64,000 nt of DNA from Embleya scabrispora (lineage in GTDB: Bacteria; Actinomycetota; Actinomycetes; Streptomycetales; Streptomycetaceae), in the NCBI RefSeq assembly GCF_002024165.1, contig NZ_MWQN01000002.1, forward strand, positions 1,054,001 to 1,118,000, written 5' to 3'. The stretch's first letter is position 1; every line of letters begins with the position of its first letter. The translations under genes and the position numbers were made by a program. Below the pieces are notes generated by a model, which had not been told where the DNA came from, made no database searches, and saw nothing but the letters and a program-made list of their open reading frames with translations. Positions 18,761 through 41,408 of this stretch are shown here, piece by piece.

Positions 18761-19921
18761 TCAGCCCGTCCGGTGCCGCTCGGCGAAGCGCCAGTCGACG
18801 CCGTTCGCGCGTAGGAACTCCAGCCACCGGCGGGCATCCTCGGCACCCTGGGCGGCCTGGCGCAGGCCCGCCGGCACCCGCCCGGCGAGGATTTCGGTGA
18901 TCCCGTACGCCAGCGGCAGGGACACACACCGCGCCATCGCGCTCTCCTCGGCGTCGCCGACCGTGTCCAGCACGTATTCGCCGTGCCAGCCCGCGCCGTT
19001 CGTGCCCTCGATGTCGAGCGCGACGGCGAGTACGACCCGGTCCCGGTCGGCGTCGGTGGTCGGATACCGGGCGGCGAGTTCGTCGGCGAGCGCGGCGATG
19101 CGGTCGCCGTCGCCGGTGCGCACGGTGGCGAACACGTCCTCCCACGCCCGCAGCCAGCCGTCCAGGCGAAGCGTGCCCCGGACGAACACGCGCGCCCGCC
19201 AGTCGGCCGGGAACGCGTACTGGGTGAGGTAGGGCAGGCTGTCGCGGTTGGGGTAGGCCTCGAACGTCTCGCCGTCGAGCACGAGCGGACGCGTCGCCGT
19301 CCACGGGAGGTCGACCACCTGCTCGGCGCCGCCGTCGAGGTAGCGGGCCGGCGCGCGCAGCGCGTTCAACACCCCGCGCGGCGCCCAGCTGAACCGGTAG
19401 CGGAACTCGTTGGACTCGGCCGGGACTCCGCCGCAGTACGAGGTGAACTCGACCGTCGCCGGGCCGTCGCCGACGACCTCGCGGCCCCTGGCCACCAGCA
19501 GGTCGGCGAACAGGTGGTCGATGCCCGGGTCCAGGCCCGCCTCGGTCAGCACGACCAGACCGGCCTTCGTCGCGGCCGCCGCCTCGGACACGATCTCATC
19601 GGACACGTAACTGCTGCACGCGAAGTGGGCGCTGCGCTCGATACACAGCCGCAGCAGCGCCGGGTGTTCGCTCGCGGGCAACATCGACACGACGATGTCG
19701 CCGGGACGCAACTCCCCGGCCAGTCGGTCGAGATCGTAGGTGTGCGCGGCGGCGCGACCGGTCAGGCCCAGCCGAGCCAGGCACCGCTCGGCCTTGGCGT
19801 CGGTACGGCCCCAGACCAGCAGCCGCTCGGCCCGGTCGGCCACCACACGCAGTCCGCTGCCGGTGGACAGGCCGGTGCCGATCCAGTGCACGGTTCCGCC
19901 GGCGGGTGTCGCCTCAGACAT
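18761..19921 (-). CDS. Saccharopine dehydrogenase, L-glutamate-forming (LYS9 type)
   Basis: A 386-residue enzyme closely matching the yeast LYS9 pattern: Rossmann start, DIVVSMLP, the CSSYVSDEI segment, EAGLDPGIDH, SYCGGVPA and FSWAPRGVL, YPNRDS and RGTLR in the expected order. LYS9 reversibly joins 2-aminoadipate 6-semialdehyde and glutamate to saccharopine with NADPH. The first ATG is 19921, overlapping the upstream LYS1-like gene by eight bases. In this operon the semialdehyde is the expected by-product of hydrazinoacetate formation, so this enzyme probably captures it. It is unusual in bacteria to see it paired with LYS1 inside a biosynthetic cluster. Confidence 0.92.
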   Translation of the reverse strand: MSEATPAGGTVHWIGTGLSTGSGLRVVADRAERLLVWGRTDAKAERCLARLGLTGRAAAHTYDLDRLAGELRPGDIVVSMLPASEHPALLRLCIERSAHFACSSYVSDEIVSEAAAATKAGLVVLTEAGLDPGIDHLFADLLVARGREVVGDGPATVEFTSYCGGVPAESNEFRYRFSWAPRGVLNALRAPARYLDGGAEQVVDLPWTATRPLVLDGETFEAYPNRDSLPYLTQYAFPADWRARVFVRGTLRLDGWLRAWEDVFATVRTGDGDRIAALADELAARYPTTDADRDRVVLAVALDIEGTNGAGWHGEYVLDTVGDAEESAMARCVSLPLAYGITEILAGRVPAGLRQAAQGAEDARRWLEFLRANGVDWRFAERHRTG

Positions 19922-25286: not shown

Positions 25287-26081
25287 TCAGATCACTTCGA
25301 CGTGCTGGTCGGCCCGAACCGCGTTCAGCAGCAGGTCGATCACCGCCGAGGGCCCCTTGTCGCGGAAGTGGAAGTGGCCGCCGTCGACCCAGTGGCACTC
25401 GGGTGGGTGCACACACTCCTCTTCCCACAACGCGACCTTGTCGGGGGACAGGTAGGGGTCGTCGCGCCCGGCGATCACCGTGACGCCCACCGGCAGCGGG
25501 GCTGCGGCCGTGTACTCGTATCCGGCGGCCATCCGGAAGTCGGCGATCACGCCGGGCAGCAGCAGATCCAGAACCTCGTCCTGGGCCAGCACCTCCGGGG
25601 GCAGCCCCTCGAAGAACTCCAGTGCCTCGGCGAATTCGCGGCCCTCCAGGGCGGCAAGCCGACACACCCGCTCCGAGGGCGCGAGCGAGGGGGCCGAGAC
25701 CCCGGAGACGAACAACCGGCGCAGCGTGGGTACATCGCGCAACCGACGCGCGGTCTCGAACGCGACGAGGCTGCCCAGGCTGTGCCCGAACAGGTACACC
25801 GGCCGGGTGGCGTCGGCGCCCGGCGTGCCGGCCCGAGCCCGGATCGCCGAGGCCGCGCCGTCCGCGAATTGCGCCAGCGTCGGTCGGGCCTCGCGGGCCC
25901 GGTGGGCGCGGCCGGGCGGGCACACGGCGACCAGTTCGGCCTCGTCGCCCAACTCCGCCTGCCAGGTCAGGAACGACCGCGCGTCGCCGCCGGCGTGCGC
26001 GAAGCAGTACACGAGCGGGATGTGTGCGGCGGCATGGTCGCGCGAGACGAACCAGCCGTCGCCGGTCACGGACACACTCAC
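25287..26081 (-). CDS. Type II thioesterase
   Basis: A 264-residue alpha/beta hydrolase of the NRPS/PKS TE II group: CFAHAGGDARSF near the start, nucleophile GHSLGS (about residue 103), Asp in AGRDDPY and His in DGGHFHF. TE II enzymes remove wrong groups from carrier domains or release intermediates. No integrated TE domain occurs in the NRPS, so it could also release product. GTG 26081 overlaps the upstream stop (GTGA). Confidence 0.9.
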   Translation of the reverse strand: MSVSVTGDGWFVSRDHAAAHIPLVYCFAHAGGDARSFLTWQAELGDEAELVAVCPPGRAHRAREARPTLAQFADGAASAIRARAGTPGADATRPVYLFGHSLGSLVAFETARRLRDVPTLRRLFVSGVSAPSLAPSERVCRLAALEGREFAEALEFFEGLPPEVLAQDEVLDLLLPGVIADFRMAAGYEYTAAAPLPVGVTVIAGRDDPYLSPDKVALWEEECVHPPECHWVDGGHFHFRDKGPSAVIDLLLNAVRADQHVEVI

Positions 26082-27175
26082 GCGATCACCTCCGCCGACG
26101 TGGACCCGCCGGGCGTCGCGGGCGCGCGCAGCGAGAACGAGTGGGTGCGGTTCAGCGCCGGATCGCCCGGCCGCACGTGCAGTTCGCCGAGGTCCGGCCG
26201 CAACACCACCGCCGCCACGGTGCGTTCCCGGCGGATGTCGCCGTTGCCCTCGACCCGGATCGGCGCCCGCGACAGCAGCGCGAAGTGTGCCTCGACGCCT
26301 GCGTCGGGCGGCAACTCGCCCACCCGGGTCCGGCAGGCGTCCAGCCGCTGCCGGGAGAAGTTGCGGGCGAAGACGTTGAGTTCGTCGGAGGCGAGGAAGT
26401 CCGGGTGCAGGAAGTGGTTGGTGTGCATGCTCGTCGAGGACACGTTCACCCGCTGCTCGTCGTCCAGGATCTCCACCCACGCCGTCTTGCGGGCATCGCA
26501 CAACACCAGGTTGCGCGAACTCGCGAGCTTGAGCGTGCGCAGGATCCGCACCGCCTCGTCCACGTCGGCGGCGCTGTCCAACAGATGACGGATGGCCAGG
26601 TACGGCGGCAGTCCCGGCCGCCATCGGCCGCCGAGCACGAGATTGAGCCCGACCGCCAGGCCGTCGCTGTTGATCCCCAGATAGCCCAGGAGGCCACCGA
26701 AGCCGAGCACCAGGACCCGGCGGGGCGAGCCGGTCCGCGCGATGTCCAGGACACAGATCTGGTCGTCCAGGTCGCCGTTGAGATCGACCGTCTGCGCCAG
26801 CACCGGACCGGCCGCGCCGGCGACGGCGTACGTCGTACAGTCGCCCATGGTCGGGATGCGCTGGTATCCCATCACCTCGCGCCGGATCTGCAGCAGCAGC
26901 GCCTCGTCGGCATCCAGCCCCGCGCCCTCGGCGAGCCCGCGCAACTCCTCGGCCAGCAGCGGCGTCCGGGCCTCGATCTCGACCCGGTACGCGTCCAGCA
27001 CGGGCCGCAGCGTCGCCCACGACACCCGGTTCGTCCCGACCCGGTTGAGCCGGGCCATTCCGTCGTCGAGGAAGGCCCGCAGGCTCTCGGCGCGCTCGGC
27101 GCCGTGCCGCCGCCCGCACGCGAAGGCGTCGCCCCGGGCCCGCACCACCGGCACCGCGAGGGTGTCGGCGGTCAT
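26078..27175 (-). CDS. C45 peptidase/isopenicillin-type acyltransferase homolog
   Basis: A 365-residue Ntn-hydrolase of the acyl-CoA:6-aminopenicillanate acyltransferase family (peptidase C45). Self-cleavage is expected at the Cys of TMGDCTTYAV (about residue 118), making that Cys the N-terminal nucleophile; MHTNHFL and NVFARNFSR match later family positions. Known members exchange acyl groups on amines. Here it may acylate or deacylate the product or a self-protected intermediate. It overlaps its neighbours by four bases on both sides. Confidence 0.83.
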   Translation of the reverse strand: MTADTLAVPVVRARGDAFACGRRHGAERAESLRAFLDDGMARLNRVGTNRVSWATLRPVLDAYRVEIEARTPLLAEELRGLAEGAGLDADEALLLQIRREVMGYQRIPTMGDCTTYAVAGAAGPVLAQTVDLNGDLDDQICVLDIARTGSPRRVLVLGFGGLLGYLGINSDGLAVGLNLVLGGRWRPGLPPYLAIRHLLDSAADVDEAVRILRTLKLASSRNLVLCDARKTAWVEILDDEQRVNVSSTSMHTNHFLHPDFLASDELNVFARNFSRQRLDACRTRVGELPPDAGVEAHFALLSRAPIRVEGNGDIRRERTVAAVVLRPDLGELHVRPGDPALNRTHSFSLRAPATPGGSTSAEVIA

Positions 27176-27786
27176 GCCTGCCCCGTCGGCCTGGTCACCT
27201 TGGGCCCGGCGAGCAACTGCTCGCGCACCGAGGGCCATTCGCCGCGCAGCACGCTGTAGTAGATCGCGTCGCGCCGCCGTCCGCCGGGCATCGGGTTGAA
27301 GCTGCGCAGCACCCCCTCCTCGGTGGCGCCGATGTTGCGCAGTCCCGCGCGCGCCTGGAGGTTGAGCACGTCGGTCTTGAACTCCACCCGTTCGGCGTTC
27401 AGTTGTTCGAACGCGTGCTCCAGCATGAGGAACTTCGCCCAGCGGTTGACGCCCTTGCCCCGGAACTCGGCGCCCAGCCACGACCAGCCGATCTCCAGCC
27501 GCCCGTCCGGTTCGGCGATGCTGCAAAAGCTCATGCTGCCCGCCGTGCGGTCCACCGATTTGTCGATCACGTTGTAGACGACCCGGCGACCGGCGGCCTG
27601 ATCGGCCAGCGCCGCGTCGAAGAACGCGTCGAACTCGGCGTCGGTGGCGATGACCAGCACGAAGTAGCGCCAGATCTCGGGGTCCATCGCCTGTTTGCGG
27701 AACGCCTCGCGGTCCTCGGGGACGATCGGGCGCAGCAGGACGTGCTCGTTCTCCAGTGTCGTCGAAGCGGTCTGCACCCACGTCAT
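27172..27786 (-). CDS. GNAT N-acetyltransferase (RimJ/RimL-like)
   Basis: A 204-residue GNAT protein with the usual order: LLRPIVPEDREAF, EIGWSWLGAEFRGKGVN (acetyl-CoA loop RGKGVN near residue 111) and ARAGLRNIGATEEGVLR. It transfers an acetyl group to an amine. In a hydrazine pathway, N-acetylation for self-protection or tailoring is plausible but unproven. The stop overlaps the next start (ATGA); ATG 27786 lies directly after the ACP stop codon at 27788-27790 with no gap for a separate promoter. Confidence 0.88.
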   Translation of the reverse strand: MTWVQTASTTLENEHVLLRPIVPEDREAFRKQAMDPEIWRYFVLVIATDAEFDAFFDAALADQAAGRRVVYNVIDKSVDRTAGSMSFCSIAEPDGRLEIGWSWLGAEFRGKGVNRWAKFLMLEHAFEQLNAERVEFKTDVLNLQARAGLRNIGATEEGVLRSFNPMPGGRRRDAIYYSVLRGEWPSVREQLLAGPKVTRPTGQA

Positions 27787-27787
27787 C

Positions 27788-28051
27788 TCAAGCCGCCTTT
27801 CCGGCGTGGCGCGACAGCGCCTCGGTCACGTCGCGCAGCGTGCTCATGGCCGCGACGTCGGGTTCGGTGAAACAGGACAGGTCCACCCCGGCATCGTCGC
27901 AGGCGGCCATCAGGAACAAGACCTTGTTCAGCGAAGTCAATCCGTACGTGCCGACCATGTCCTGGTCCGGGTCGATGTCCTGGGGGGCGACGTCGGACTC
28001 CAACACCCGGGCCAGGTTCGTCCTGGCCACGGTCTCAATCTCGGACTGCAT
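27788..28051 (-). CDS. Free-standing acyl/peptidyl carrier protein
   Basis: An 87-residue carrier protein with the phosphopantetheine Ser in YGLTSLNKV (about residue 40) and four-helix spacing. ATG 28051 lies 17 bases inside the end of the upstream acyl-AMP ligase gene, so the two are probably translated together and the ligase is the likely loader. It may pass its acyl group to the KAS III-like transferase or to the NRPS. Confidence 0.85.
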   Translation of the reverse strand: MQSEIETVARTNLARVLESDVAPQDIDPDQDMVGTYGLTSLNKVLFLMAACDDAGVDLSCFTEPDVAAMSTLRDVTEALSRHAGKAA

Positions 28052-29579
28052 GGATGCCTCCCTCGGTGTCGTGGATCCGGGAACGGTAGGCGTCGAGAAT
28101 GCGCCCACGCCTGGGCTTGAGCTGGGAGGTGAGCAGTCCGTTCCCGACACTGAACCGGGGATCGGCCACCACCACCGCGCGGATCTGCTCGTCGGGGCCG
28201 AACGCGGCGTTGGTGTGGGCCAGTTGCTCGGCGACGGCGCGCTCCAGGTCGGGCCCGCTCGCATCCGCCGCCGGGGAGACCACGGCGACCAGCCGGGTCT
28301 GCGTCGGGCAGAACACCACACACTCCTCGATCGCGGGACCGGCCTTCATCCGCTCCTCCAGCGGCCGCACGACGATCTTGCGGCCGTTGTCCAACACGAT
28401 CACGTCGTCGGCGCGCCCGTGCACGTACAGGAATCCGTCCTCGTCCAGCCGGCCGATGTCGTTGGTGCGCACGGTGCCGTCGGGGGCGAACACCCGCTCG
28501 GACACCCCGGGCGGCGCCTGCTCGTAGCCCGTGCACACCGGGTGCTCGGCGCGTACGTGGATCACCCCTTCGGCGTCCAGGATCACCTGTTTCCCCGGCA
28601 GGACACGCCCGACACTGCCCCGCCGATGCGCGCCGGGGTGGTTCTTGGTGACGATGCACGTCTCGTTGAGGCCGTAGCCCTCGAAGATCGGCAGTCCCGC
28701 GTCCTCGAAGAAGGCCAGCGTGCCGGTGGAGGCCGGCGCCGAACCGGTCCACAGATAGCGGATGCGGTCGCCGAACAACCGCCGCGCGCCGTCGCGGCGC
28801 GCCGTCGCCTCGCCCGTGTCCGCGCCGCGCATCCGCGCCTCGATGTGCTTGCGGGCCGTCTCGAAGAACCCCGGCACACCCATCACCACCGTCGGCCGGA
28901 TCGCGCGCAGCGCCGGGAACGCGGCCTCGTAGGTGCAGATCGTGACGTCGTGGCCCCAACGCAGCGCCGAATACGTCCAGTAGCGCTGCTGGAGCACCGA
29001 CAGCGGCAGGAACACGAGCAGGTTGTCCTCGCCGCCGTGCGCGAACATCTCCTGGACCGAGCGCAGATCGTCGTCGATGCTGCCGACGGACGCGGTGAGC
29101 GTCTTGGGTTCGCCCGTGCTGCCCGAGGTGAGCTTCAGCGACAACACGTCGTCGGGCGTATAGACGACCGGTGCCAACACCCGACCGTCGTCCGGTAGGG
29201 CCGCCGCGACCTCGATCTCGGCGAGCGCCCTGCTGCCGGGGGCCTGGGGTGGCCCGTCGGTGAACAGCACGCCCAGCCGGTAGCGTTCGCGCAGCCCGGT
29301 GTCGGTGTCGAACTTGGCCGGGTCGAAGCCCACCGTCACCGCGCCCAGGCGGATCGCCGCGAGATCGAGCAGCACCCAGGCGAGGCCGTTCGGGGCCAGG
29401 ATGCCGATCCGGTCGCCCCGCTCGATGCCCAGGTCGCGCAACCACAGCGCGAGGCGCCCGGCGCGCGTGTGCAGGTCGGTCAGTTCCATCGTCCGGGTCC
29501 CGCCGAGCCGGAAGAAGGAGATGTGCCCGCCGGGGGAGGGGGCTTGGGCGGCGATGTGGTTGATCACCGAATCGCTCAC
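28035..29579 (-). CDS. Stand-alone acyl-AMP ligase (adenylation enzyme)
   Basis: A 514-residue ANL enzyme with LKLTSGSTGEPKTL (P-loop-like A3, about residue 140), YGLNETC (A5), TNDIGRLDEDGFLYVHGRADD (A7/A8) and the catalytic Lys in SQLKPRRG (about residue 485). It resembles long-chain acyl-CoA/AMP ligases more than amino-acid A domains, lacking the conserved Asp235 context. It probably activates a carboxylic acid and loads the small ACP encoded next. The acid could be a fatty acid or hydrazinoacetate; sequence does not decide. GTG 29579 overlaps the NRPS stop. Confidence 0.88.
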   Translation of the reverse strand: MSDSVINHIAAQAPSPGGHISFFRLGGTRTMELTDLHTRAGRLALWLRDLGIERGDRIGILAPNGLAWVLLDLAAIRLGAVTVGFDPAKFDTDTGLRERYRLGVLFTDGPPQAPGSRALAEIEVAAALPDDGRVLAPVVYTPDDVLSLKLTSGSTGEPKTLTASVGSIDDDLRSVQEMFAHGGEDNLLVFLPLSVLQQRYWTYSALRWGHDVTICTYEAAFPALRAIRPTVVMGVPGFFETARKHIEARMRGADTGEATARRDGARRLFGDRIRYLWTGSAPASTGTLAFFEDAGLPIFEGYGLNETCIVTKNHPGAHRRGSVGRVLPGKQVILDAEGVIHVRAEHPVCTGYEQAPPGVSERVFAPDGTVRTNDIGRLDEDGFLYVHGRADDVIVLDNGRKIVVRPLEERMKAGPAIEECVVFCPTQTRLVAVVSPAADASGPDLERAVAEQLAHTNAAFGPDEQIRAVVVADPRFSVGNGLLTSQLKPRRGRILDAYRSRIHDTEGGIHAVRD

Positions 29580-32500
29580 GGCGTGTTCGCCCCCGCCCCG
29601 GCGCGCTCGGCCAGACCGCGTTCGACGTGCGCGGCCATCGTGCGGATCGTGTCCACCTCCGGCAGGCGGTCCAGCGTGATGGTCAGACCGAACCGTTTGC
29701 GCACCCCGGCGAGGATGCGCGCGGCCACCAGCGAGTCGCCGCCCAGGTCGTAGAGAGGGCGGGTGACGTCCAGGTCGACGTCCGCGACGCGCAGCGGTTT
29801 GGCCCACAACCCCGCGACCACCAGCTCCAGTTCCGAATCGGCGGCCGTGGGCCCGGCCGTCGCCGGTGCGACCGCCTCGGCGGCGGCCGCGAGCCCGGCA
29901 CGGTCCACCTTGCCGTTGCGGGTCAACGGCAGCGCGGCGTGCCAGTACACGGCGGCCGGGATCATGTACTGCGGCAGATGTTCGCGCAGCGCGGCGCGAA
30001 CCGCCTCCACGTCCGGGCGTTCGTCGCCGGCCGGGACCAGATGGGCGACCAGCCGATCGCCGCGCGCGCCCGACTGCCGGGAGACCACCGCGCGTTCCAC
30101 GGCGGGCAACGCGACCAGTCGGGTCTCCACCTCTCCGGCCTCGATGCGGTAGCCGTTCACCTTGATCTGGAAGTCGCCCCGGCCGAGGATGTCGATCTCG
30201 CCGTCCGGCAGGTAGCGACCCAAGTCTCCCGTCCGGTACCGGCGTTCGCCCCGTTCGGGGTCGAGGACGAAGCGCTCGGCGGTCAACTCCGGGTCGCCCC
30301 AGTAGCCTCGCGCCAGGCCCACCCCGGCGGCCCAGATCTCGCCAGTGACCCCGTCGGGCACATCGCACCCGAACTCGTCCAGCACGTACGCCCGGTTGTT
30401 CGCGTTGGGCCGACCGTAGGGGATGCTGCGCGAGCCGTCCTCGTCCGCGCCGATCGGGTGCGACACGTTCCAGATCGTGGTCTCCGTCGGCCCGCCCAGC
30501 GAAACGAGTCGCGCGTCCGGCACGAGCTTGCGCAGGTCCTGTGGCAGCGTCGGCGGAATACGGTCGCCGCTCATCATCACCAGGCGCAGCGTGTCCAGCG
30601 CGTCCGTGCCCTCCGCCGCCTGATCGCGCAGCAGCGACACGATCGCCGGCACCGAGTTCCACACGCTCACGCGCGCCTCGCCGCACAACGACAACCAGTG
30701 CGCGGGATCGGCCGCTCGGTCCGCGTCCGGCAACACCACGGCCGCCCCGGAGCACAGGGCGCCGAAGACGTCGTAGACGGACAGGTCGAAATTGAAGGCG
30801 CTGATCCCGAAGAAGCGGTCCGCCGGCCCGATGCCGAAGCGCGCGTTGCAGTCGGCGACCACGTTGGCCACGCTCCCGCGAGCGACCATGACCCCCTTGG
30901 GCTCGCCGGTGGTCCCCGACGTGTACAACACGTACGCCAGATGGTCGTCGTTCGCGGCGCCGGGCACCGGACGCGGATCGGGCACCGGTCCCGGCGGCAG
31001 CGGCCGGCCGGCGTCGAGCACCAGGACCTCGCGTCCCGTCTCGGCGCCCGCCTCCGCGGCGTTGGTCAACACCACCCGTGCCCGGCCGTTGTCCAGCATG
31101 TACGCGCGCCGCGCGGGCGGGAGCGCGGCGTCGACGGGCAGGTACGCGGCCCCGGCGAGCAGCGTCGCGAGAATGCCGACGACCTGCTCGGGCCCACGAC
31201 CCATCACCAGCCCGACCAACTCGTCCGGGCCCACGTCGTGGGCGCGCAACCAGGCGGCGGCGTGCGCCGCGTGCCCGTACACCTGCGCGTAGCTCAGCGA
31301 GGCGCCCGAGGTCAGTACGGCCGGCGCGTCGGGCGCACGCTCCACGTGCGACAGGAACGCGTCGATCAGCATGCCCGGCGCGGGCGGCGGCGCCGCCGTC
31401 GCGTTGGCCGCCCGGCGGCGCTCGCGCTGCGCCTCCGGCAGCAGGTCGAATGTCCGCGCCGACCACGATTCCTCGACGAGCAGCGCCTCCAGGAGGTGCT
31501 GGTAGCCCGCGACCAGATCCGGCACCAGACCGTCCGGGAACAGTTCGTCGACGCTGTCGAACTGCACGACCACGCCGCCGTGTTGCTCGAACGTGGAGAC
31601 ATCGAGCCACACCTGCGGGGTCTGACTGGAGGTGTACACCTCCGGTCCGAACAGCTCCAGGGCCGAGCCGTCGACGTCCGCGTGCGCGTAGCCGAGCGCG
31701 CTGTTGAACGTGTACGGCATCGGCCCGCGCGCCGCGCCGTCGCCGCGTCGGGCGGCCTCGCGCAACACCTCGATGCCGGTGAAGTGCCGGTTGTCCAACC
31801 CTCGGCGCAGCCCGGCCTGCAACGCCCGGGCCCGCTCGACGAAGGGCAGGCGCCGGTCCACCTCGACCTCGACGAGCATCGTCTCGCAGAAATTGCCGAC
31901 CGCCTCGAAGATGCGCGGGTGGATCGGCGGACGGTTCGCCACCGTGGTGTTGATCGTGAACCGCGAACCGGCGCCCCAGGCCGCGAGGGTGTCGGCGTAC
32001 ACCGCGAACAGCACGGCGGAGGGGGTGAGTCCGGCCGCCGCCGCCCGGGCCCTGAGCGCGGTCCACCGCGGCTCGGTCAGCCGGGCGAAGCGCGCCGAGA
32101 AGCGTGGCGCCACGATCGAGGAGGGACTGGTACGCAGGGGCAGGTCGGGGGCGGGCGCGAGGTCGTCGAGCCGGTCCATCCAGTACGCGCGGGCCCGCTT
32201 CGCCGGGGCCCGGGTACGCGCGGCCTCGATCGCGGCCACGTAGGCCTCGAAGGACGCCTCCTCCGCCGGGGCTTCGGCGGTGTCCCCGGTCGAGTCGCCG
32301 CTCGCGTCGTAGGCCCGGCGCCAGTCGCGGAAGAACAGGAACATGCCGATCGCGTCCATGACCAGGCCGTCGTGGTCGACGTGCAGCACCATCCGGTCGT
32401 CCGCCAACACGGTGACGTCGACCGCCACGAGCGGCGCGCGGTCGGCCGGCAGCACCCGGTGCGAGCGCGACGCGCGTTCGGTGCGCAGGTGTTCGTGCCG

Positions 32501-32929
32501 CGTCGCCTCGGACGCGTCGCGCAGGTCCATGCGCCCGACGCGCACCTCGACCTCGGCCTCCCGCACCTGTCGGCCGTCGGGGGTGAAGCGGGTGCGCAAC
32601 GCGTCGTGGCGTGCCACCACCGCCCGCAGCGCGGCCTCCAGGCGGTCGAGGTCCCAGGCGCCCTCGATCTCGTGGTAGACGTGACTGGCCACGTTGCCCA
32701 TCTCGACGTGCTCGCCCCGACCGACCAGATAGCTGCGTTGCAGGTCGGTCATCGCGAAGCCGTCCGGGGGATCCAGATGGGCGACGAGGGCCGCCTTGTG
32801 CTCCTTGATCAGGCGCAGCAGCTCGGGATCCATGCGTTCCCGGGGACCCTGCAGGCGCAGATCGGCTCCGGCGGCCGAGATGGTCAGCCCCCTGGCCTCG
32901 ATCTCGTGGAGAACCCCGAGGTGGTTCAC
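29576..32929 (-). CDS. NRPS: TubC docking - heterocyclization - A(Cys) - PCP
   Basis: A 1117-residue single-module synthetase. Residues 1-55 are a TubC-like docking domain. The condensation domain (about 60-480) is of the Cy type: DGLVMDAIG matches DxxxxDxxS except for the final Gly, and SQTPQVWLD and PYTFNSALG are Cy-specific. The A domain (about 519-990) has LYTSGTTGEPKG near 670. Its pocket reads D-L-Y (in DLSVY), N (VWNS), M-S (VMMSGD), L-I-W (TTIW), the cysteine code DLYNMSLIW. PCP Ser is in GGDSL (about 1061). There is no TE. It should form a thiazoline from cysteine and an upstream carrier-bound acyl group. GTG 32929 overlaps the previous gene by four bases. Confidence 0.93.
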   Translation of the reverse strand: MNHLGVLHEIEARGLTISAAGADLRLQGPRERMDPELLRLIKEHKAALVAHLDPPDGFAMTDLQRSYLVGRGEHVEMGNVASHVYHEIEGAWDLDRLEAALRAVVARHDALRTRFTPDGRQVREAEVEVRVGRMDLRDASEATRHEHLRTERASRSHRVLPADRAPLVAVDVTVLADDRMVLHVDHDGLVMDAIGMFLFFRDWRRAYDASGDSTGDTAEAPAEEASFEAYVAAIEAARTRAPAKRARAYWMDRLDDLAPAPDLPLRTSPSSIVAPRFSARFARLTEPRWTALRARAAAAGLTPSAVLFAVYADTLAAWGAGSRFTINTTVANRPPIHPRIFEAVGNFCETMLVEVEVDRRLPFVERARALQAGLRRGLDNRHFTGIEVLREAARRGDGAARGPMPYTFNSALGYAHADVDGSALELFGPEVYTSSQTPQVWLDVSTFEQHGGVVVQFDSVDELFPDGLVPDLVAGYQHLLEALLVEESWSARTFDLLPEAQRERRRAANATAAPPPAPGMLIDAFLSHVERAPDAPAVLTSGASLSYAQVYGHAAHAAAWLRAHDVGPDELVGLVMGRGPEQVVGILATLLAGAAYLPVDAALPPARRAYMLDNGRARVVLTNAAEAGAETGREVLVLDAGRPLPPGPVPDPRPVPGAANDDHLAYVLYTSGTTGEPKGVMVARGSVANVVADCNARFGIGPADRFFGISAFNFDLSVYDVFGALCSGAAVVLPDADRAADPAHWLSLCGEARVSVWNSVPAIVSLLRDQAAEGTDALDTLRLVMMSGDRIPPTLPQDLRKLVPDARLVSLGGPTETTIWNVSHPIGADEDGSRSIPYGRPNANNRAYVLDEFGCDVPDGVTGEIWAAGVGLARGYWGDPELTAERFVLDPERGERRYRTGDLGRYLPDGEIDILGRGDFQIKVNGYRIEAGEVETRLVALPAVERAVVSRQSGARGDRLVAHLVPAGDERPDVEAVRAALREHLPQYMIPAAVYWHAALPLTRNGKVDRAGLAAAAEAVAPATAGPTAADSELELVVAGLWAKPLRVADVDLDVTRPLYDLGGDSLVAARILAGVRKRFGLTITLDRLPEVDTIRTMAAHVERGLAERAGAGANTP

Positions 32930-35229
32930 GCCGGCACCCCCGCGCGTGCGGCGACCTCGTCCGGGTCCAGGCCCTCGGCGATCAGCGCGCTCAGTTCGGT
33001 GACCGTGCGGGCGCCGAGCAGTTCCTCGATCGGGACGTCGGCGTCGACCTGCTCGGTGAGTCGGTACTGCAGGGCGATCGCCTGGAGCGACGCCATGCCC
33101 AGCTGGATCAGCGAGCGGTCGTGCACGGGCTCGTCGGCGGGCAGTCGCAGGAGATCGCGCACCAGCGCGCTGAACCACGGGAGCAGCGGCGGTTCCGGTC
33201 GGTCGGCGGCCGGGGCCGAGGGTCGCGCGTCGGCCGTTCCGGGGACGGCGAAGAACTCCCGGCCGGCCAGGTCGACGACGGTCCCGGCGGGCACCAGGTC
33301 GATCCGGGCGGGCCAGCGGGTGGGCGCGGGGATGCCGAGCGCGGCCGAGAGGCGGTCCGCGAACCGGGGCATCACCGGGGCGCCGCACGTGGCGAGCAGC
33401 CGGGCGGCGGCCAGTTCGAGGGCGATCGCCGTGCGCGCCTCGTCCTTGAAGTCCGCCACGTCGGCGGCGGGAGCCTGGAGACGGACGAAGGCGGTGACGT
33501 CCGTGACGATGCCGTCGAGCAGTTCGGCCGCGCGGTTGAGCGAGAAGCCGTCCTGCCCCAGGGCCCCGGTCAGCGCCGAGCGGCGCGCCTCCAGGCGGGC
33601 CAGGAAGGCCGCGTGTTCGGGCCGCCACACACCGGCGTCGGGCGCCACGCCCGCATACCGTTCGGCGACGCGCTCGCCCAGGTCGTTCAGCCACGTCTGC
33701 CAGGTGCCGACCAGGGTGTCGCGGACGAAGCTCTCGTACGCGTCGGGGGAGAAGCTGGTGCGCCGGCCCTCGGGGCGGGTCAGCGCGAGGTAGAAGCGGA
33801 TCGAGTCGACCGTGCGCGGGTTCAGCACGTCCTTGCCCCAGATCGCGTGGCCGCGGCTGGTGGAGAACTTGCTGTCCTCCAGCAGGTAGAACTCGTTGAT
33901 GTTGTAGTCGATGTCCGGCTGCCAGCGCGGATGCGCGACCCGGTACAGCGCCGGGATGAACATGGGGTGGAAGAAGCTGCCGTCCGAGCCCAGGAAGTGC
34001 ACGATCTTCCAGTCGGGCGAGGGGGCGTCCGCGTCCCAGTCGCGGCCCAGGCCGCGCCCGAGTTCCCCGATGCCGTAGAGGATGCTGAAGGCGTAGTCCA
34101 GCCAGGACCAGATCACCTGGCCCGGCACATCGGTCTCGGCGGGGGTGATGCCCCACTCGGCCACGTGCGTGACCGGGATGTGCAACTGCTCGCGGCGCGA
34201 GAGGCGTTCGGCCAGTTCCTTGACCGCCGCCGGAACCCGGCCGAGCCGGTGGTGGTCGGTGACGACCTTCCCGAACTCGTGCAGCGGGAAGGTGTAGCGC
34301 ACCAGCGCCCGCTCGTGCGGAGGCGCGTCGCACGCCGCCGAGCGCGGCTCGATCAGGTCGGTGCACACGTTGGGTTCCAGGCACGTCTCGCAGATGTTGC
34401 CACCGCTGTCGCCGTCGCACGTGGGGCAGCGGCCGGAGACTCCCGACTCGTACAGGTATTCGCCGGTGTCGGCGGCGAACAGCGCGGCACTCTCGCGCGG
34501 CGCCACGGTTCCCGACGCGGTCAGCCGGGAGAAGAACGCCCGCAGCGCGGCCGGATAGGCGTCGTCGCGGCTGGTCGCGGTGTACTGGTGGACGTCGATG
34601 TCCATCAGCTTCAGCGTGGCGAGGATCTCGGCGCTGTAGTGCGCGGCCGTCTGAGCCGGGGTGCGACCCTCCCGACGGGCGGCGGCCACCACGTAGTTCT
34701 GGTAGTCGTCGCTGCCGGTGATGTGCCAGGCGTCGGCGCCGAGCATGCGCTGATGGCGGACGAACACGTCGGCGCCGAAGAACGGCCCCGACAGGTGCCC
34801 CAGATGCAGGTCCCCGTTGGGCGTGGGCGCGGAGGAGAAGACGAACACGGGACGCGTGCCGAACCCGCGGTGCCCGGTGTCGTGGGCGGCGTTCATCGCC
34901 CGGTCGCCGTCGCGCCAGTACAGGCTGACGAACAGCAGGTCGGTGTCCCCCGTGTTCTCCACGGAGTGGGTCTCGAACGGTTCGAACTGCACCACGGTGG
35001 ACGCGGACACCGGATGGCGTTCGGCGTCCACGGTCAACTCCCCGGTGCCGGAGACGAACACCCATGTCTCCGTCTCGTCGTGCTGGTGCGCCTCCGAGCG
35101 CGCGCCGGGGGCGACACCGACCCAGGTCGCGCCGACACCCAGCCGCGTCGCGGAACCCGCCTCCACGGCGGCCACGGCGACGCCGTCGGCGGCGTGGGGG
35201 GCGTCGGGGCGGTAGGTGCTGATCTTCAC
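32926..35229 (-). CDS. Hydrazine synthetase: cupin - MetRS-like - carrier domain fusion
   Basis: A 767-residue fusion. Residues 1-95 are a cupin (HQHDETETWVF, the metal-binding His/Glu set). Residues about 115-640 are a methionyl-tRNA-synthetase-like catalytic core with HLGH (near 141), Cys-rich zinc knuckle CPTCDGDSGG..CETC, and KFSTSRG (near 451). The first two parts are those of Spb40-type enzymes, which couple N6-hydroxylysine with glycine through an N-N bond. The C-terminal 85 residues add a carrier domain with LGMASLQAI (Ser near 711). That extra domain would let the glycine-derived unit be held or handed to the NRPS encoded next. GTG 35229 follows AAGGAG. Confidence 0.93.
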   Translation of the reverse strand: MKISTYRPDAPHAADGVAVAAVEAGSATRLGVGATWVGVAPGARSEAHQHDETETWVFVSGTGELTVDAERHPVSASTVVQFEPFETHSVENTGDTDLLFVSLYWRDGDRAMNAAHDTGHRGFGTRPVFVFSSAPTPNGDLHLGHLSGPFFGADVFVRHQRMLGADAWHITGSDDYQNYVVAAARREGRTPAQTAAHYSAEILATLKLMDIDVHQYTATSRDDAYPAALRAFFSRLTASGTVAPRESAALFAADTGEYLYESGVSGRCPTCDGDSGGNICETCLEPNVCTDLIEPRSAACDAPPHERALVRYTFPLHEFGKVVTDHHRLGRVPAAVKELAERLSRREQLHIPVTHVAEWGITPAETDVPGQVIWSWLDYAFSILYGIGELGRGLGRDWDADAPSPDWKIVHFLGSDGSFFHPMFIPALYRVAHPRWQPDIDYNINEFYLLEDSKFSTSRGHAIWGKDVLNPRTVDSIRFYLALTRPEGRRTSFSPDAYESFVRDTLVGTWQTWLNDLGERVAERYAGVAPDAGVWRPEHAAFLARLEARRSALTGALGQDGFSLNRAAELLDGIVTDVTAFVRLQAPAADVADFKDEARTAIALELAAARLLATCGAPVMPRFADRLSAALGIPAPTRWPARIDLVPAGTVVDLAGREFFAVPGTADARPSAPAADRPEPPLLPWFSALVRDLLRLPADEPVHDRSLIQLGMASLQAIALQYRLTEQVDADVPIEELLGARTVTELSALIAEGLDPDEVAARAGVPA

Positions 35230-35248
35230 GACGGCTCCTTCACTTCGG

Positions 35249-36343
35249 TCACGCGTGCGGAGGAATCGAGGACAGGTCCAGCAGATCCGCGGCCTCCGCC
35301 GCGATCGCCGGGGCGAGCCGATATCCGGACCCGTTGGCGGCGCCCGCGAAGACGACGCGTCCGTCGCCCAACGCCCGCACCTGCGGTTCGCCGGTGGGGC
35401 TGTACGCGTCGCAGAACACCCGTCCCGAGACGCGGTGTTCGGCCAGCGCGGGGGCGTGCCGGCGCAGACTCGCGCGCGCCTGGTCGACGTCGTCGGCGGA
35501 CAGGCCGCCGGCCAGGTCGTCGGGATCGACGTCCCAGGTCGTACAGGTGTAGCTGAACAGCCAATGTCCCGAGGCGTGCAGCGGCAGCAGGAACGCGTCC
35601 TCGTCGTGGAAGACGACGGCCCGGTCGGTGCGGGCCGGGACCCGCTCGACATGCAGGGCGACGATCTTCTTGACGCGGGCGCCCAACGGGGCCAGCAGCG
35701 CGCGCCAGGCGGGTTCGGCGAGCCAGGGTCCCGGGGCCAGTACGACCCGATCCGCGGTCACCGTCTCGCCGGTGCCGAGGGTGAGTTCGACCCCGTCCGG
35801 GCCCGGGTCCGCGGAGCCGACGGCGCGCATCGTGTCCACGTGCACACCCTCGCGCAGGGTCACCCGGGGCCGTAGTTCCCGGGCGAGGCCGTGGACCAGC
35901 GCGTAGACGTCGGCGTACTGGGCGCCGCGACAGTCCCAGACCCGCGCGGAATCGGGAAGTCGCAGATCGGTAGGGCCGGTTCGACCATCGGGAGAGTCGA
36001 CGGGGGTCAACTCGGCGCTGTCGAGGTAGATCTCGCGCACGCGCGCGGCGTTCGCGGGGGAGGCGACCACCGACATCGGAACCGCGTGAATCGGCAGCCT
36101 GGGCGCGGAGTCCTTGAGTTCGGCGTAGTACCGCTGGCTGTACGCCGTCATGCGCCGAACCCGCTCCGTCGCGCCGCGCGGACAGTGCAACCCGGCCGAC
36201 CGGCGGCTCGCTCCGGTACCGACGGTGTCCCGGTCCAGCAGCAGGACGGACGCCTGCGGCGCGCGGGCGACGATCTCCCGGGCGACCAGGCAGCCGACGA
36301 TTCCGGCGCCGACGACCGCCACATCGGTGTGTTCCCGGCTCAC
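35249..36343 (-). CDS. FAD-dependent amine oxidase (DAO family) of the hydrazine set
   Basis: A 364-residue flavoenzyme of the DAO/glycine-oxidase family. The FAD-binding VVGAGIVG is at residues 9-16 and the C-terminal FAD/active-site region is DGRVVFAGAANGSGYRLAP. In s56-p1 biosynthesis the equivalent enzyme (Spb39) oxidises N6-(carboxymethylamino)lysine, freeing hydrazinoacetate and 2-aminoadipate 6-semialdehyde. The same step is inferred here from gene context. GTG 36343 overlaps the lysine hydroxylase stop (GTGA). Confidence 0.88.
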   Translation of the reverse strand: MSREHTDVAVVGAGIVGCLVAREIVARAPQASVLLLDRDTVGTGASRRSAGLHCPRGATERVRRMTAYSQRYYAELKDSAPRLPIHAVPMSVVASPANAARVREIYLDSAELTPVDSPDGRTGPTDLRLPDSARVWDCRGAQYADVYALVHGLARELRPRVTLREGVHVDTMRAVGSADPGPDGVELTLGTGETVTADRVVLAPGPWLAEPAWRALLAPLGARVKKIVALHVERVPARTDRAVVFHDEDAFLLPLHASGHWLFSYTCTTWDVDPDDLAGGLSADDVDQARASLRRHAPALAEHRVSGRVFCDAYSPTGEPQVRALGDGRVVFAGAANGSGYRLAPAIAAEAADLLDLSSIPPHA

Positions 36344-37692
36344 AGAGCGTCCAGATCGTCGACGGGCGGTTTGGCGGACCACTCCACGAACGACGGCAAT
36401 TGTTCGTCGGAGCCCACCCCGAGAAGCCGGTCGAGGATGCGCCGGCTGCGCCAGGCGGTCAGGCTCAGATTGGGATCCGCCAGTCCGCGCTGACCGCGTG
36501 CCGCGTTCTGCATGAAAATGAGGCGGTCGCGGGGGCCGTCCCATTGCACGGCGAAATCCCGGTCGATGCGATACTCGTCGCCCTCGCGCTCCAGGCGGCT
36601 TTCGATCGGCGCGAGGAATTCGGTCGACGCCGGACGAAAACCGGTGGCCCACACGATGGTGTCCACATCCACGTACTCGACCACACCCGGCCGGTCGTTG
36701 TGGCCCATCTCGATGGTCCACCCGCCGGACTCGTTCCCGCTCACCTCGGTGACCGCACGATTGGGCAGCAGCGCCAGCAGATCCTGCGTGCCCTCGATGA
36801 AGCGGTGCTCGTAGCAGCGCTGGTAGATCTCCCGCAACGTCGACTCGGAGATGCCGTCGCTGCTCAGCACATGACGCCTGTTGAGCGACTCGCGAACCGC
36901 CCGGTCCACCCCGGCGAAATACTCCGAATAGCTCGGCGTGTAGTACTCGTTGGTGAAGGGCGAGTCGTCGATGGGGAAGTAGTTCCCGCGCCGCGAGATC
37001 CAGGTCACGCGCCGGGGTAATTTCCTCGGCGCCCGTGATATCAGATCCAGAAACGCCTCGGCTCCGGACTGGCCGCCCCCGACCACGGCGACCCGCTTGC
37101 CGGCGAGTCCGGGGCGTGTTCCGTCGATGAAGTCGCTGACGTGGAACTGGGTGTCGCCGAGTTTGTCCCGGGCATGCTCGGGAACCCATGACGTGGTACC
37201 GACACCGACGCAGATGTTCTCCGCCGTCACGGTGCGCCGGCCGGTGTGCACGACGAACGCGGCACGCGCGTCGTCGAACTCCACGGCATCCACTTTCTCG
37301 CCGAAGACGATGTTCTCGTTGCGTCGGCTCGCCCACTCCAGATAGTTCCGGAATTCCCGGCGGGGAACCGCGTCGTATTGGGCGTTGATGAAGTGGTAGA
37401 TCTTGCCCTGCTCGTGCAGATACGAGAGGAAGGAGAACCCGTTGGTCGGGTCGGAGAGGATGACGAGATCCTTGAGCAGCGACACCTGTAAGGACGCGCC
37501 GGGTATCTGCTGATTGTCGTGCCAGCCGAACCGCTCCTTCTGGTCGAGAAAGAGGTTCGGCGTCTCCGCGCGCCCGTGCAGCAGTGACGCCAGGCTCAGG
37601 TTGGCAGGACCGACCCCGATGCCGACACAGCGGTACTGCGCCGACTGGGGTTCGATGTTTCCCGAAACACGGTTTTCGACTGGTTTCCGCAC
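36340..37692 (-). CDS. L-lysine N6-monooxygenase (IucD/SidA family)
   Basis: A 450-residue flavin N-hydroxylase. FAD motif GIGVGPANLS is at about residues 24-33, the substrate region LLKDLVILSDPTNGFSFLSYL at about 75-95, the NADPH motif VVGGGQSGAEAF near 203 and ATGFRP near the C-terminus. It converts lysine to N6-hydroxylysine with NADPH and O2. Siderophore enzymes share this family, but no siderophore synthetase is present; the adjacent cupin-MetRS and DAO genes point to hydrazine formation. It is the first gene of the operon. The start is GTG 37692; the ribosome site is poor. Confidence 0.92.
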   Translation of the reverse strand: MRKPVENRVSGNIEPQSAQYRCVGIGVGPANLSLASLLHGRAETPNLFLDQKERFGWHDNQQIPGASLQVSLLKDLVILSDPTNGFSFLSYLHEQGKIYHFINAQYDAVPRREFRNYLEWASRRNENIVFGEKVDAVEFDDARAAFVVHTGRRTVTAENICVGVGTTSWVPEHARDKLGDTQFHVSDFIDGTRPGLAGKRVAVVGGGQSGAEAFLDLISRAPRKLPRRVTWISRRGNYFPIDDSPFTNEYYTPSYSEYFAGVDRAVRESLNRRHVLSSDGISESTLREIYQRCYEHRFIEGTQDLLALLPNRAVTEVSGNESGGWTIEMGHNDRPGVVEYVDVDTIVWATGFRPASTEFLAPIESRLEREGDEYRIDRDFAVQWDGPRDRLIFMQNAARGQRGLADPNLSLTAWRSRRILDRLLGVGSDEQLPSFVEWSAKPPVDDLDAL

Positions 37693-39179: not shown

Positions 39180-39330
39180 GAGGCTGAGCCCGCACGTCGG
39201 ATGCCGTGCCCGAGGGTGCGGCATCCGGCGTGTTCCGGCGCATCGGACGCCCGGGTTCCTACCGGCCGGCGGGAGCCCAGCCGGAGTCCGGCCCGAGCCC
39301 AGCCAGCCGGACCCCAGCCCAGCCCAGCCC

Positions 39331-39449
39331 GAGTCCCGCCCGGGCCCGAGTCCCGCCCGGGCCCGAGTCCCGCCCGGGCCCGAGTCCCGCCCGGGCCCGA
39401 GTCCCGCCCGGGCCCGAGTCCCGCCCGGGCCCGAGTCCCGCCCGGGCCC
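39331..39449. repeat. 17-bp tandem repeat x 7 between precursor and enzymes
   Basis: GAGTCCCGCCCGGGCCC is repeated seven times without a change, preceded by an imperfect AGCCCAGCC stretch from about 39288. Each unit holds the palindrome GGGCCC and CCCGGG, so the RNA can fold into many alternative GC-rich hairpins. It lies in the 0.3 kb gap between the precursor stop and the ribosome site of the DUF4135 gene. Confidence 0.9.
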
Positions 39450-39476
39450 CGCCCCGTCACGGAAGGACGATTCGTC

Positions 39477-41408
39477 TTGGCCACCACGATGCCGGTTCCC
39501 GTGCTCGACCGGCTGATCCGGCAGGTACGGGAGGGCGGCGCCCAGGAGGTGTTCCCGCCCGTCGTCACCGACGGACCGGCCGAAACCCTGGCGCCCGACG
39601 GCGCGTTGGGCGGTGTGCGGGACGCCGAACAGGTGGCCGCGCTGCTCGCCGAGGACCGGTTCGCCCCGTTCCGGCGCGCGATGGAGCGACTCGACGCCTG
39701 GAGCGTCCGCGCCGCCGCCGGCATCGACGCCGACCTCCTGGCACCCGGCGTGCTCGACCCGGTCGCCTCCGCACTGTTCGCCCCCACACTGGGCGCGATC
39801 TTCACCGCGTGCCACCACTCCCCGGCGCGGGTGGCCGAGCGCCTGGCGGATCTGCGCGTCACCCAACTCCTCGGCGCACTCGACCTGTTCCTCGTTCGCA
39901 TGGCCACCGACCTGGACGCGGCGCACCGACCCCGGGACCCGCGCCTCGCCGGCCCCGTCGTCGAACTGCGCGCACACGGCGCGGAAACCCACAACGGCGG
40001 ACTGCGGGTGCTACGACTGGCGTTCGCGGGCGGCGGCGCGCTCGCGTACAAACCGCGCCCGGCGAACGGGGAAGCCCTGTTCCTGGCCGACGGCACGACC
40101 GGAGACGACCGGCAACCCGCACAATCGGGCGGCCTGTTCGAGCGGATCAACGCACTGCCGGAAGCCGCCGGACCGGTACGACTGCCGACACTGGCCACCT
40201 GGACCGGCAGCGGTCCCGGCGCGCGCGGCTACAGCTGGCACGAGTGGATCGAACCACCGGCCGAACGGGGCCCCGTCCGTGTCGACGGCTCGACCACGAT
40301 GACCGGCACGGTCCTCACCCCCGAACAGGCGCGCCGCTTCTGGCATCGGGTCGGCAACCTCGCGGCGACCTGTACCGCGTTCGGCGTCTCCGACCTGATC
40401 GGCGGCAACGTCCTGGCCGGGGCGCGCCCGCATCGGGCGCACGACGAGCCCATGCTGTACCCGGTGGACCTGGAGTGCTACTTCACCGGATCGACCGGAC
40501 TGCGCGCCACCGGCCTCCTGGGTCCGGCCCCGTCCCCCACCGAGGAGGCCGCCGACGACGACTTCGAATACCCGCCCGGCCTGGAGGACACCGCCGACTG
40601 GCGGGCCCTCGAGGGCGGCGCGCTGGTCTGGCGACGCGCGGCCGACGGGACGCTCCGACTGCTGCCCATGGACCGCCCGCCGACCCGCACGGTGGTTCCC
40701 TCCGCCGTCGCGGACACCGAGGGCGGATTCGGCCGCGCACCCCACCTCCTGTCGATGCTGCGCGGCATGTTCGACGCCTGGACGCTGCTGTGCCGGCACC
40801 GCGAGGCGGTGCGGCGCGAAGTGGAACCGCGAGCGCGCGAGGCGTACATCCGCATCGTGCCGCGCCCGACCGCCGACTACGCGCGGGCCATCGACGCCCG
40901 ACTGCGCGGCACCACCGCGGAACGCCATCCGGACGGCGAACCCTTCAGCGTCGACGAGAAGGCGCAGCTGAGCCGCTGGGACGTGCCCTACTACTTCTGC
41001 GCGGCGGTCCCGCCCGAGGGCGACCCGGCCGGCCCCGGCGCACCGCTCCTCGCCCTGGCCCCGGCGCCGGAACCCTTCCTGGCCAAGCCCGTTCCGTTCG
41101 CGGAGAGCCCCGAGGCGGAGGTTCCCGAATTCCCCTCGGCCGGACTGCACCGCTACGCCGACCCCACCCTGGCCGCGCTCGGCCCGGCCCTGCGCGACGC
41201 GGTGGTCGGAGTGATCGAGCAACTGCCGGACTCCCGAACCCTGGTGGACCCCGCACTGGGCGTGGCGCTGCGCTGGTCCGAGGGCGGCACCGACGGCCGG
41301 GTCGACTTCGACTGGCCGAGGGCGGGCCGGCGGATCGGCTACGAATGGGCCGGCGGCACACTGCGCATCCACCTGGCGAAGCTCGACACCCCGGGGGAGG
41401 CGTCGTGA
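39477..41408 (+). CDS. Cyclase-less LanM-like protein (DUF4135 dehydratase homolog)
   Basis: A 643-residue protein matching the N-terminal dehydratase part of LanM (DUF4135): GGGALAYKPRP (ATP-binding Lys), GNLAATCTAFGVSDLIGGNVLA, YPVDLECYF, and IRIVPRPTADY (phosphate-elimination Arg/Thr region). The LanM motif D-x-H-x-E-N reads D-L-I-G-G-N, so Asp and Asn are kept but His and Glu are lost. The LanC cyclase domain is absent. It may phosphorylate or dehydrate the precursor without ring closure, or act differently. TTG 39477 is chosen because GGAAGGA lies nine bases upstream; ATG 39489 is an alternative. Confidence 0.85.
   Translation: MATTMPVPVLDRLIRQVREGGAQEVFPPVVTDGPAETLAPDGALGGVRDAEQVAALLAEDRFAPFRRAMERLDAWSVRAAAGIDADLLAPGVLDPVASALFAPTLGAIFTACHHSPARVAERLADLRVTQLLGALDLFLVRMATDLDAAHRPRDPRLAGPVVELRAHGAETHNGGLRVLRLAFAGGGALAYKPRPANGEALFLADGTTGDDRQPAQSGGLFERINALPEAAGPVRLPTLATWTGSGPGARGYSWHEWIEPPAERGPVRVDGSTTMTGTVLTPEQARRFWHRVGNLAATCTAFGVSDLIGGNVLAGARPHRAHDEPMLYPVDLECYFTGSTGLRATGLLGPAPSPTEEAADDDFEYPPGLEDTADWRALEGGALVWRRAADGTLRLLPMDRPPTRTVVPSAVADTEGGFGRAPHLLSMLRGMFDAWTLLCRHREAVRREVEPRAREAYIRIVPRPTADYARAIDARLRGTTAERHPDGEPFSVDEKAQLSRWDVPYYFCAAVPPEGDPAGPGAPLLALAPAPEPFLAKPVPFAESPEAEVPEFPSAGLHRYADPTLAALGPALRDAVVGVIEQLPDSRTLVDPALGVALRWSEGGTDGRVDFDWPRAGRRIGYEWAGGTLRIHLAKLDTPGEAS

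What the first reader, a model, noticed from the sequence alone, without database searches (positions are those of the whole stretch)
32926..37692. Hydrazine-forming trio whose cupin-MetRS enzyme carries its own carrier domain
The first three operon genes match the lysine N6-hydroxylase, DAO oxidase and cupin-MetRS fusion that make hydrazinoacetate in s56-p1-type pathways (established for Spb38/39/40). Here the cupin-MetRS protein ends in an extra carrier domain (LGMASLQAI, about residue 711). As far as I know the described enzymes release a free product, so a tethered version would link N-N bond formation directly to assembly-line chemistry. The carrier may hold the glycine unit, the coupled intermediate, or later the hydrazinoacetyl group.
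Basis: partly seen in the sequence, partly recalled or inferred. Interest (0 to 1): 0.9.

Follow-up and report, generated by a model that had tools for sequence, protein, structure and literature searches.

The report
Azaserine-type hydrazine enzyme with carrier domain

Summary
Confirmed: lysine N6-hydroxylase (36340-37692), DAO oxidase (35249-36343) and a 767-aa cupin-MetRS protein (32926-35229), all on the minus strand. Its C-terminus is a real carrier domain (PF00550 above cut-off; modelled helical bundle with Ser714 at a helix start). This is not new: it is the AzsN/AzaE architecture of azaserine clusters (Shikai 2023). There, in-vitro work shows that the carrier receives a finished 2-hydrazineylideneacetyl group late, from AzsQ through AzsD, and passes it to the Cy-type NRPS AzsO. 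N-N bond formation itself is not tethered. The window holds nearly the whole azs set (L M N O P Q S T B C D E H I J K), in an Embleya genome. In all seven the amino-acid pocket differs from that of the nine azsF/G-containing fused clusters checked. Their AzsO proteins keep the Cy aspartate (engineering Asp there abolished ester synthesis in S. fragilis AzsO) and differ at one adenylation-code residue. The product is probably not plain azaserine; its identity is not determined.

The parts
36340..37692 (-). azsL-like lysine N6-hydroxylase (450 aa)
   Evidence: PF13434 313.8 bits; 65-96% identical in relatives
35249..36343 (-). azsM-like FAD-dependent DAO oxidase (364 aa)
   Evidence: PF01266 full length, 112.5 bits; start overlaps the azsL stop
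32926..35229 (-). azsN-like cupin-MetRS-carrier hydrazine synthetase (767 aa)
   Evidence: Pfam domains; closest solved structure is the PyrN MetRS-like domain, 9l8v
34921..35124 (-). cupin domain, residues 36-103, with H48/H50/E54/H88
   Evidence: PF07883 50.6 bits; residues correspond to PyrN H50/H52/E56/H90
33697..34842 (-). MetRS-like catalytic domain, residues 130-511; changed pocket SSAP / SWLDYAFSI / GSDGSFFH
   Evidence: PF09334 192.4 bits; pocket comparison
32980..33174 (-). C-terminal carrier domain, residues 686-750; phosphopantetheine serine 714 (33088-33090)
   Evidence: PF00550 30.9 bits; model; carrier folds in PDB
29576..32929 (-). azsO-like NRPS: TubC-like docking, Cy, A, CP (1117 aa with the GTG start that overlaps the azsN stop)
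   Evidence: Pfam (TubC_N 21.7 bits, below its 26-bit cut-off); GTGA overlap; DHDGLVMD, FN, LD motifs
28035..29567 (-). azsP-like AMP-binding ligase
   Evidence: PF00501 140.7 bits
27788..28051 (-). azsQ-like free carrier protein (87 aa)
   Evidence: position and conservation in relatives; weak PF00550 16.7 bits, below cut-off
27172..27786 (-). azsS-like GNAT, expected to succinylate the hydrazine acid
   Evidence: PF13302 72.6 bits
26078..27175 (-). azsT-like C45 hydrolase
   Evidence: NF040521 228 bits, above cut-off
25287..26075 (-). azsB-like thioesterase
   Evidence: PF00975 115.9 bits
24353..25216 (-). azsC-like isocitrate lyase/PEP mutase family protein
   Evidence: PF13714 236.9 bits
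23439..24248 (-). azsD-like KAS III family acyl transferase between carriers
   Evidence: PF08545/PF08541
21056..23353 (-). azsE-like haem-oxygenase-fold iron redox enzyme (765 aa)
   Evidence: PF14518 59.3 bits
19914..20999 (-). azsH-like saccharopine dehydrogenase (AlaDh/PNT fold)
   Evidence: PF05222 75.5 bits; about 57 bp after azsE, no azsF or azsG between
18761..19846 (-). azsI-like saccharopine dehydrogenase
   Evidence: PF16653 123.5 bits
17122..18456 (-). azsJ-like ATP-grasp protein
   Evidence: PF13535 60.1 bits
15734..17116 (-). azsK-like MFS transporter
   Evidence: PF07690 122.3 bits

Best explanation
The protein is an AzsN/AzaE-type bifunctional enzyme in an azaserine-like (azs) cluster. 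Early step: the hydroxylase makes N6-hydroxylysine, the MetRS-like domain adenylates a small amino acid and esterifies it onto the hydroxylamine, the zinc cupin rearranges the ester to an N-N bonded adduct that is released, and the DAO oxidase cuts the lysine side off to give a free hydrazino acid. Late step: the GNAT succinylates that acid, the AMP ligase loads it on the free carrier AzsQ, the C45 hydrolase removes the succinyl group, and the KAS III-like AzsD moves the acyl group onto the C-terminal carrier of AzsN. The Cy domain of AzsO then couples it to the amino acid on AzsO, and the thioesterase releases the product. The carrier is therefore a late acyl donor docked to AzsO, not a tether for N-N bond formation. 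Shown here: gene content, domain architecture, motifs, variant traits. Taken from published work on S. fragilis: the reactions. Inferred: that they run the same way here; and, because azsF and azsG are absent and the MetRS pocket, Cy aspartate and A-domain code differ, that the final product is a relative of azaserine rather than azaserine.
For: The window encodes homologues of azsL, M, N, O, P, Q, S, T, B, C, D, E, H, I, J and K in one run. Published azs content and reactions. azsN lies directly upstream of azsO with a 4-base GTGA overlap, as Shikai et al. report for all carrier-bearing AzsN homologues. AzsO has a TubC-like docking domain, the DxxxxD motif and the Thr-to-Asn change that mark the ester-forming Cy domain. 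All 15 relatives with a fused carrier that were examined have azsO next to azsN. The carriers of window-type and azsF/G-type proteins form one group apart from the AzsQ and AzsO carriers (95/86). The closest solved structure is PyrN (9l8v). Variant traits.
Against: No biochemistry exists for this branch. AzsF, needed to make the hydrazone in S. fragilis, has no orthologue in this genome (best match 39%), so the group on the carrier may not be the same. In S. fragilis AzsO the N447D change abolished ester formation, yet this AzsO naturally has Asp there, so ester formation is uncertain. Reference S. fragilis and G. harbinensis sequences were not in the collections, so identity to AzsN itself was not measured.
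Confidence: 0.85

Rival explanations
1. One reading: the fused carrier tethers glycine, the lysine adduct or another intermediate during N-N bond formation, so the coupling runs on the assembly line.
For: The carrier is in the same polypeptide as the MetRS-like domain, and stand-alone aminoacyl-tRNA synthetase homologues that charge carrier proteins are known (seryl-type, mentioned in PMC2922099).
Against: About half of the close homologues lack the carrier yet keep the same catalytic domains (10 fused and 9 unfused loci plus one fragment in 395 Streptomycetaceae genomes). The carrier goes with azsO, not with N-N chemistry. In-vitro work puts the late HDA group on it, from AzsD. PyrN cupin and MetRS domains work as separate pieces without any carrier.
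Confidence: 0.05
2. The cluster makes azaserine itself: azsF and azsG functions are supplied by unlinked genes, or AzsE alone oxidises the hydrazine to the diazo group.
For: Every other step of the published pathway has a homologue, including AzsE, in all seven azsF/G-less clusters. The genome has 38 acyl-CoA dehydrogenase-like and 24 P450-like matches to the queries. The enzyme that makes the diazo group in azaserine was not identified in the papers read.
Against: The best unlinked matches are generic (39% and 32%). The loss is shared by three genera, and pocket, Cy and A-domain residues changed too, which a simple relocation would not predict.
Confidence: 0.25
3. The azsF/G-less branch uses an amino acid other than glycine, giving an alpha-substituted hydrazino or diazo acyl group (thrazarine, which Shikai et al. 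expect to derive from threonine, is one candidate).
For: Differences from all carrier-bearing and carrier-free relatives concentrate in the amino-acid pocket: among columns conserved in both groups, 10 of 33 pocket columns differ against 5 of 146 elsewhere in the domain (p = 2e-5). Pocket residues equivalent to E. coli MetRS 252, 256, 260 and 297 are S, Y, I, G here and V, M, F, N in nearly all the others. MetRS-like domains are the specificity gatekeepers of the family.
Against: The direction of the specificity change cannot be read from sequence; residues typical of the glutamate enzyme PyrN are absent; the test regions were drawn after the difference was first noticed; the branch is one clade, so the changes are not independent of ancestry.
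Confidence: 0.4

Closest known systems
AzsN / AzaE / Aza12 of azaserine clusters (Streptomyces fragilis, Glycomyces harbinensis)
   Same: Cupin, MetRS-like and C-terminal carrier domains in that order; directly upstream of a Cy-A-CP NRPS; same surrounding gene set
   Different: Here no azsF or azsG, a different gene order (L-T block first), a changed MetRS amino-acid pocket, Asp retained in the Cy domain, Tyr instead of Trp at one A-domain code position (compared with azsF/G-containing clusters fetched here)
Spb40 (s56-p1) and Tri28 (triacsin)
   Same: Cupin-MetRS hydrazine synthetase next to a lysine N6-hydroxylase and a DAO oxidase
   Different: No carrier domain, according to the literature; different downstream assembly
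PyrN (pyrazomycin), solved as 9l8v
   Same: MetRS-like domain fold and chemistry; closest solved structure
   Different: Glutamate-specific (arginines align with W376 and H421 of the window protein); no carrier domain
Unfused cupin-MetRS in triacsin- or dob-like clusters (e.g. Actinomadura sp. J1-007, L009/L071)
   Same: Same P, Q, S, T neighbours
   Different: Carrier and azsO absent, azsF present, pocket as in azsF/G-containing clusters

Membership tests
Cupin/MetRS-like hydrazine synthetase (Spb40/Tri28/PyrN) | Fused cupin and MetRS-like domains with cupin zinc/catalytic residues and intact ATP-site motifs | tested here: met
   residues H48, H50, E54, H88, K454
Cupin/MetRS-like hydrazine synthetase (Spb40/Tri28/PyrN) | Adjacent lysine N6-hydroxylase (and a DAO oxidase in hydrazinoacetate pathways) | tested here: met
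Cupin/MetRS-like hydrazine synthetase (Spb40/Tri28/PyrN) | Couples N6-hydroxylysine to an amino acid, ATP-dependent | not testable with these tools
   needs enzyme assay
AzsN subtype | C-terminal phosphopantetheine carrier domain | tested here: met
   PF00550 above cut-off; one group with other AzsN-type carriers; model and fold
AzsN subtype | Encoded just upstream of a Cy-A-CP NRPS with DxxxxD and the Thr-to-Asn change | tested here: met
Azaserine (azs) cluster | Minimal-set genes L, M, N, S, T, Q, O, B, E present | tested here: met
Azaserine (azs) cluster | azsF acyl-CoA dehydrogenase present | tested here: not met
   no PF02770 match inside the window; best match in the genome 39% identical
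Azaserine (azs) cluster | azsG P450 present | tested here: not met
   no PF00067 match inside the window; best match in the genome 32% identical
Azaserine (azs) cluster | MetRS pocket as in azsF/G-containing clusters (presumed glycine type) | tested here: not met
Azaserine (azs) cluster | Product is azaserine | not testable with these tools
   needs expression and mass spectrometry

The most novel reading that the evidence does not exclude
The window belongs to a distinct branch of azs-like clusters (seven found, three genera) that dispensed with the dehydrogenase AzsF and the P450 AzsG and re-shaped the amino-acid pocket of its carrier-fused hydrazine synthetase. It would use an amino acid other than glycine and make an unknown hydrazine, hydrazone or diazo acyl conjugate, with the haem-oxygenase-fold iron enzyme AzsE as the only dedicated oxidase left for the N-N group.
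Probability: 0.4. Interest if true: 0.6.

Novelty: new variant of a known kind. Interest (0 to 1): 0.42.

Why it matters
The carrier fusion itself is already explained. The azsF/G-less branch matters because the diazo-forming oxidase of azaserine was still unidentified in the papers read: if this branch makes a diazo product, AzsE becomes the prime candidate by elimination, and if it makes something else, it points to an uncharted N-N natural product. The recent genome mining of this pathway (PMC13061610) required Pfam02770, the acyl-CoA dehydrogenase domain, and so would leave out clusters like this one.

Tried and rejected
Looked for azsF and azsG elsewhere in the window and the genome by family and by protein: only generic matches. 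Looked for a conserved substitute oxidoreductase beside the seven clusters: only a transporter-like ORF (four clusters) and a large ORF of unassigned family (three clusters) recur, no dehydrogenase. Considered glutamate as the activated amino acid: rejected, because the arginines that align there in glutamate-specific PyrN are Trp and His here. Considered the A-domain Tyr as proof of cysteine activation: not safe, because the solved 6lta (FmoA3) protein, serine-type from memory, also has Tyr there. The full-length AlphaFold model is of moderate quality (pLDDT 67, ten sequences), so pocket geometry was not read from it. The supplements of Shikai et al. (Fig. S1, S2) could not be read, so it is unknown whether this branch is among their ~50 clusters; their remark that Asp is retained in some AzsO homologues suggests that it may be.

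Full report
CHECK OF THE OBSERVATION. The three genes are present on the minus strand. 36340-37692 is a lysine/ornithine hydroxylase (PF13434, 313.8 bits). The oxidase is 35249-36343, PF01266 over its full length. 32926-35229 is a 767-residue protein with Cupin_2, tRNA-synt_1g, Anticodon_3 and PP-binding matches, all above Pfam's cut-offs. The carrier serine is Ser714. A carrier-only model is confident (pLDDT 88.9) and Foldseek's nearest structures are carrier proteins, including FmoA3 and the PCP of carboxylic acid reductase, though with weak E-values for so small a domain. The closest solved relative of the catalytic part is the PyrN C-terminal domain, 9l8v.

IT IS ALREADY KNOWN. Shikai et al. 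2023 (PMC10445470) describe AzsN of Streptomyces fragilis: cupin, MetRS-like and an extra carrier domain absent from Spb40. In vitro, AzsD moves the 2-hydrazineylideneacetyl group from AzsQ to the AzsN carrier, and AzsO uses the group only from AzsN. The review PMC11705231 repeats that the azaserine enzymes carry an additional C-terminal carrier domain.

THE CLUSTER. The window holds homologues of azsL, M, N, O, P, Q, S, T, B, C, D, E, H, I, J and K on one strand from 37692 to 15734. azsN and azsO overlap by GTGA. AzsO begins with a TubC-like docking stretch (21.7 bits, below cut-off) followed by Cy, A and CP domains. The genome is an Embleya by its nearest relatives (97% to E. hyalina, 81% to E. 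scabrispora; same genus). It has one copy of azsN.

WHAT IS DIFFERENT HERE. In two named relatives (S. blattellae, S. sp. yr375) and seven further Streptomycetaceae clusters with a fused carrier, the order is E-F-G-H, where F is an acyl-CoA dehydrogenase and G a P450. In the window, E. hyalina, E. scabrispora, S. sporangiiformans, S. cf386, S. MMG1121 and Amycolatopsis rhizosphaerae, E is followed directly by H or J (about 57 bases between E and H in the window). The genomes checked hold only generic acyl-CoA dehydrogenases (39-47%); for P450s only the window's genome was checked (32%). The azsF/G-containing clusters are called canonical from their match to the published gene order; the reference strains themselves were not in the collections.

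The cupin-MetRS parts of the seven form one clade (100/100), while the fused proteins as a whole do not (p-AU 3e-8). Their carriers nevertheless group together, apart from the AzsQ and AzsO carriers (95/86). A single origin of the carrier with later losses is one reading; repeated transfer is another.

The seven share a changed amino-acid pocket: SSAP, SWLDYAFSI (SWIDYAFSI in Amycolatopsis) and G(S/A)DGSFFH instead of STPP, VWPEM(S/A)YGF and GYDNSFYH in nearly all the others. Among MetRS-domain columns conserved in both groups, 10 of 33 pocket-region columns differ against 5 of 146 elsewhere (p = 2e-5); with only the ten classical E. coli MetRS methionine-site positions (from general knowledge, mapped through the alignments) it is 5 of 10 against 10 of 169 (p = 4e-4). 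The regions were drawn after the difference was first seen, and the branch is one clade, so these p-values describe concentration, not independent events. The glutamate enzyme PyrN is arginine where the window has W376 and H421, so glutamate is unlikely.

AzsO of the seven has Asn in place of the Cy Thr, as in the literature AzsO, but keeps Asp in the second position (LD), whereas the nine azsF/G clusters have Asn (LN). In S. fragilis AzsO, N447D abolished ester synthesis. The A-domain code has Tyr where the azsF/G clusters have Trp; this fits cysteine codes from memory, but FmoA3 (6lta) also has Tyr, so the amino acid is open.

PREVALENCE. In 395 Streptomycetaceae genomes 19 have a close homologue; ten loci reach into the carrier, nine stop before it and one is a fragment. 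In 395 genomes of the class 7 have one, and the five new ones are unfused.

MOST LIKELY WORKING. Shown: gene content, motifs, domain architecture, phylogeny. From published work on relatives: hydroxylation, adenylation, cupin rearrangement, oxidative cleavage, succinylation, loading, desuccinylation, transfer by AzsD, condensation by AzsO, release by AzsB. Inferred: that the same sequence runs here without the AzsF step, that the carrier holds a late acyl group, and that the product differs from azaserine. A search of the paper library found no description of this branch, but supplements could not be read.

VERDICT. The flagged feature is real and known. The surrounding cluster is a variant worth testing. 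Interest 0.42.

Noticed in passing
window 39201-43986 (+): Divergent operon next to azsL with a DUF4135 (LanM-type dehydratase) protein, an unassigned protein and a protein with weak Cupin_8/JmjC matches; the first ORF opens with a proline- and arginine-rich repetitive stretch. Looks like a separate lanthipeptide-type locus.
   Followed up: no
window 12841-15477 (+): RamC/LanKC-type protein (RamC_N, kinase, LANC_like) convergent with azsK; in E. hyalina the homologous stretch (L063 6474-7697) matches in several pieces and is truncated, as if degraded.
   Followed up: partly
window 17122-18456 (-): The azsJ-like ATP-grasp protein is kept in all seven azsF/G-less clusters although the literature calls it dispensable in azs clusters; it has a weak L-amino-acid ligase C-terminal match, so the final product might be a dipeptide.
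   Followed up: no
L065 6315-7355, L066 5156-6334, L067 9039-10313, L008 3523-4443: A transporter-like ORF is conserved beside the azsF/G-less clusters of Streptomyces and Amycolatopsis but was not found beside the Embleya ones.
   Followed up: no
window 21056-23353 (-): AzsE keeps many invariant His/Glu/Asp residues in its C-terminal haem-oxygenase-fold domain in both cluster types, so it is probably an active iron enzyme in the branch without azsG.
   Followed up: partly
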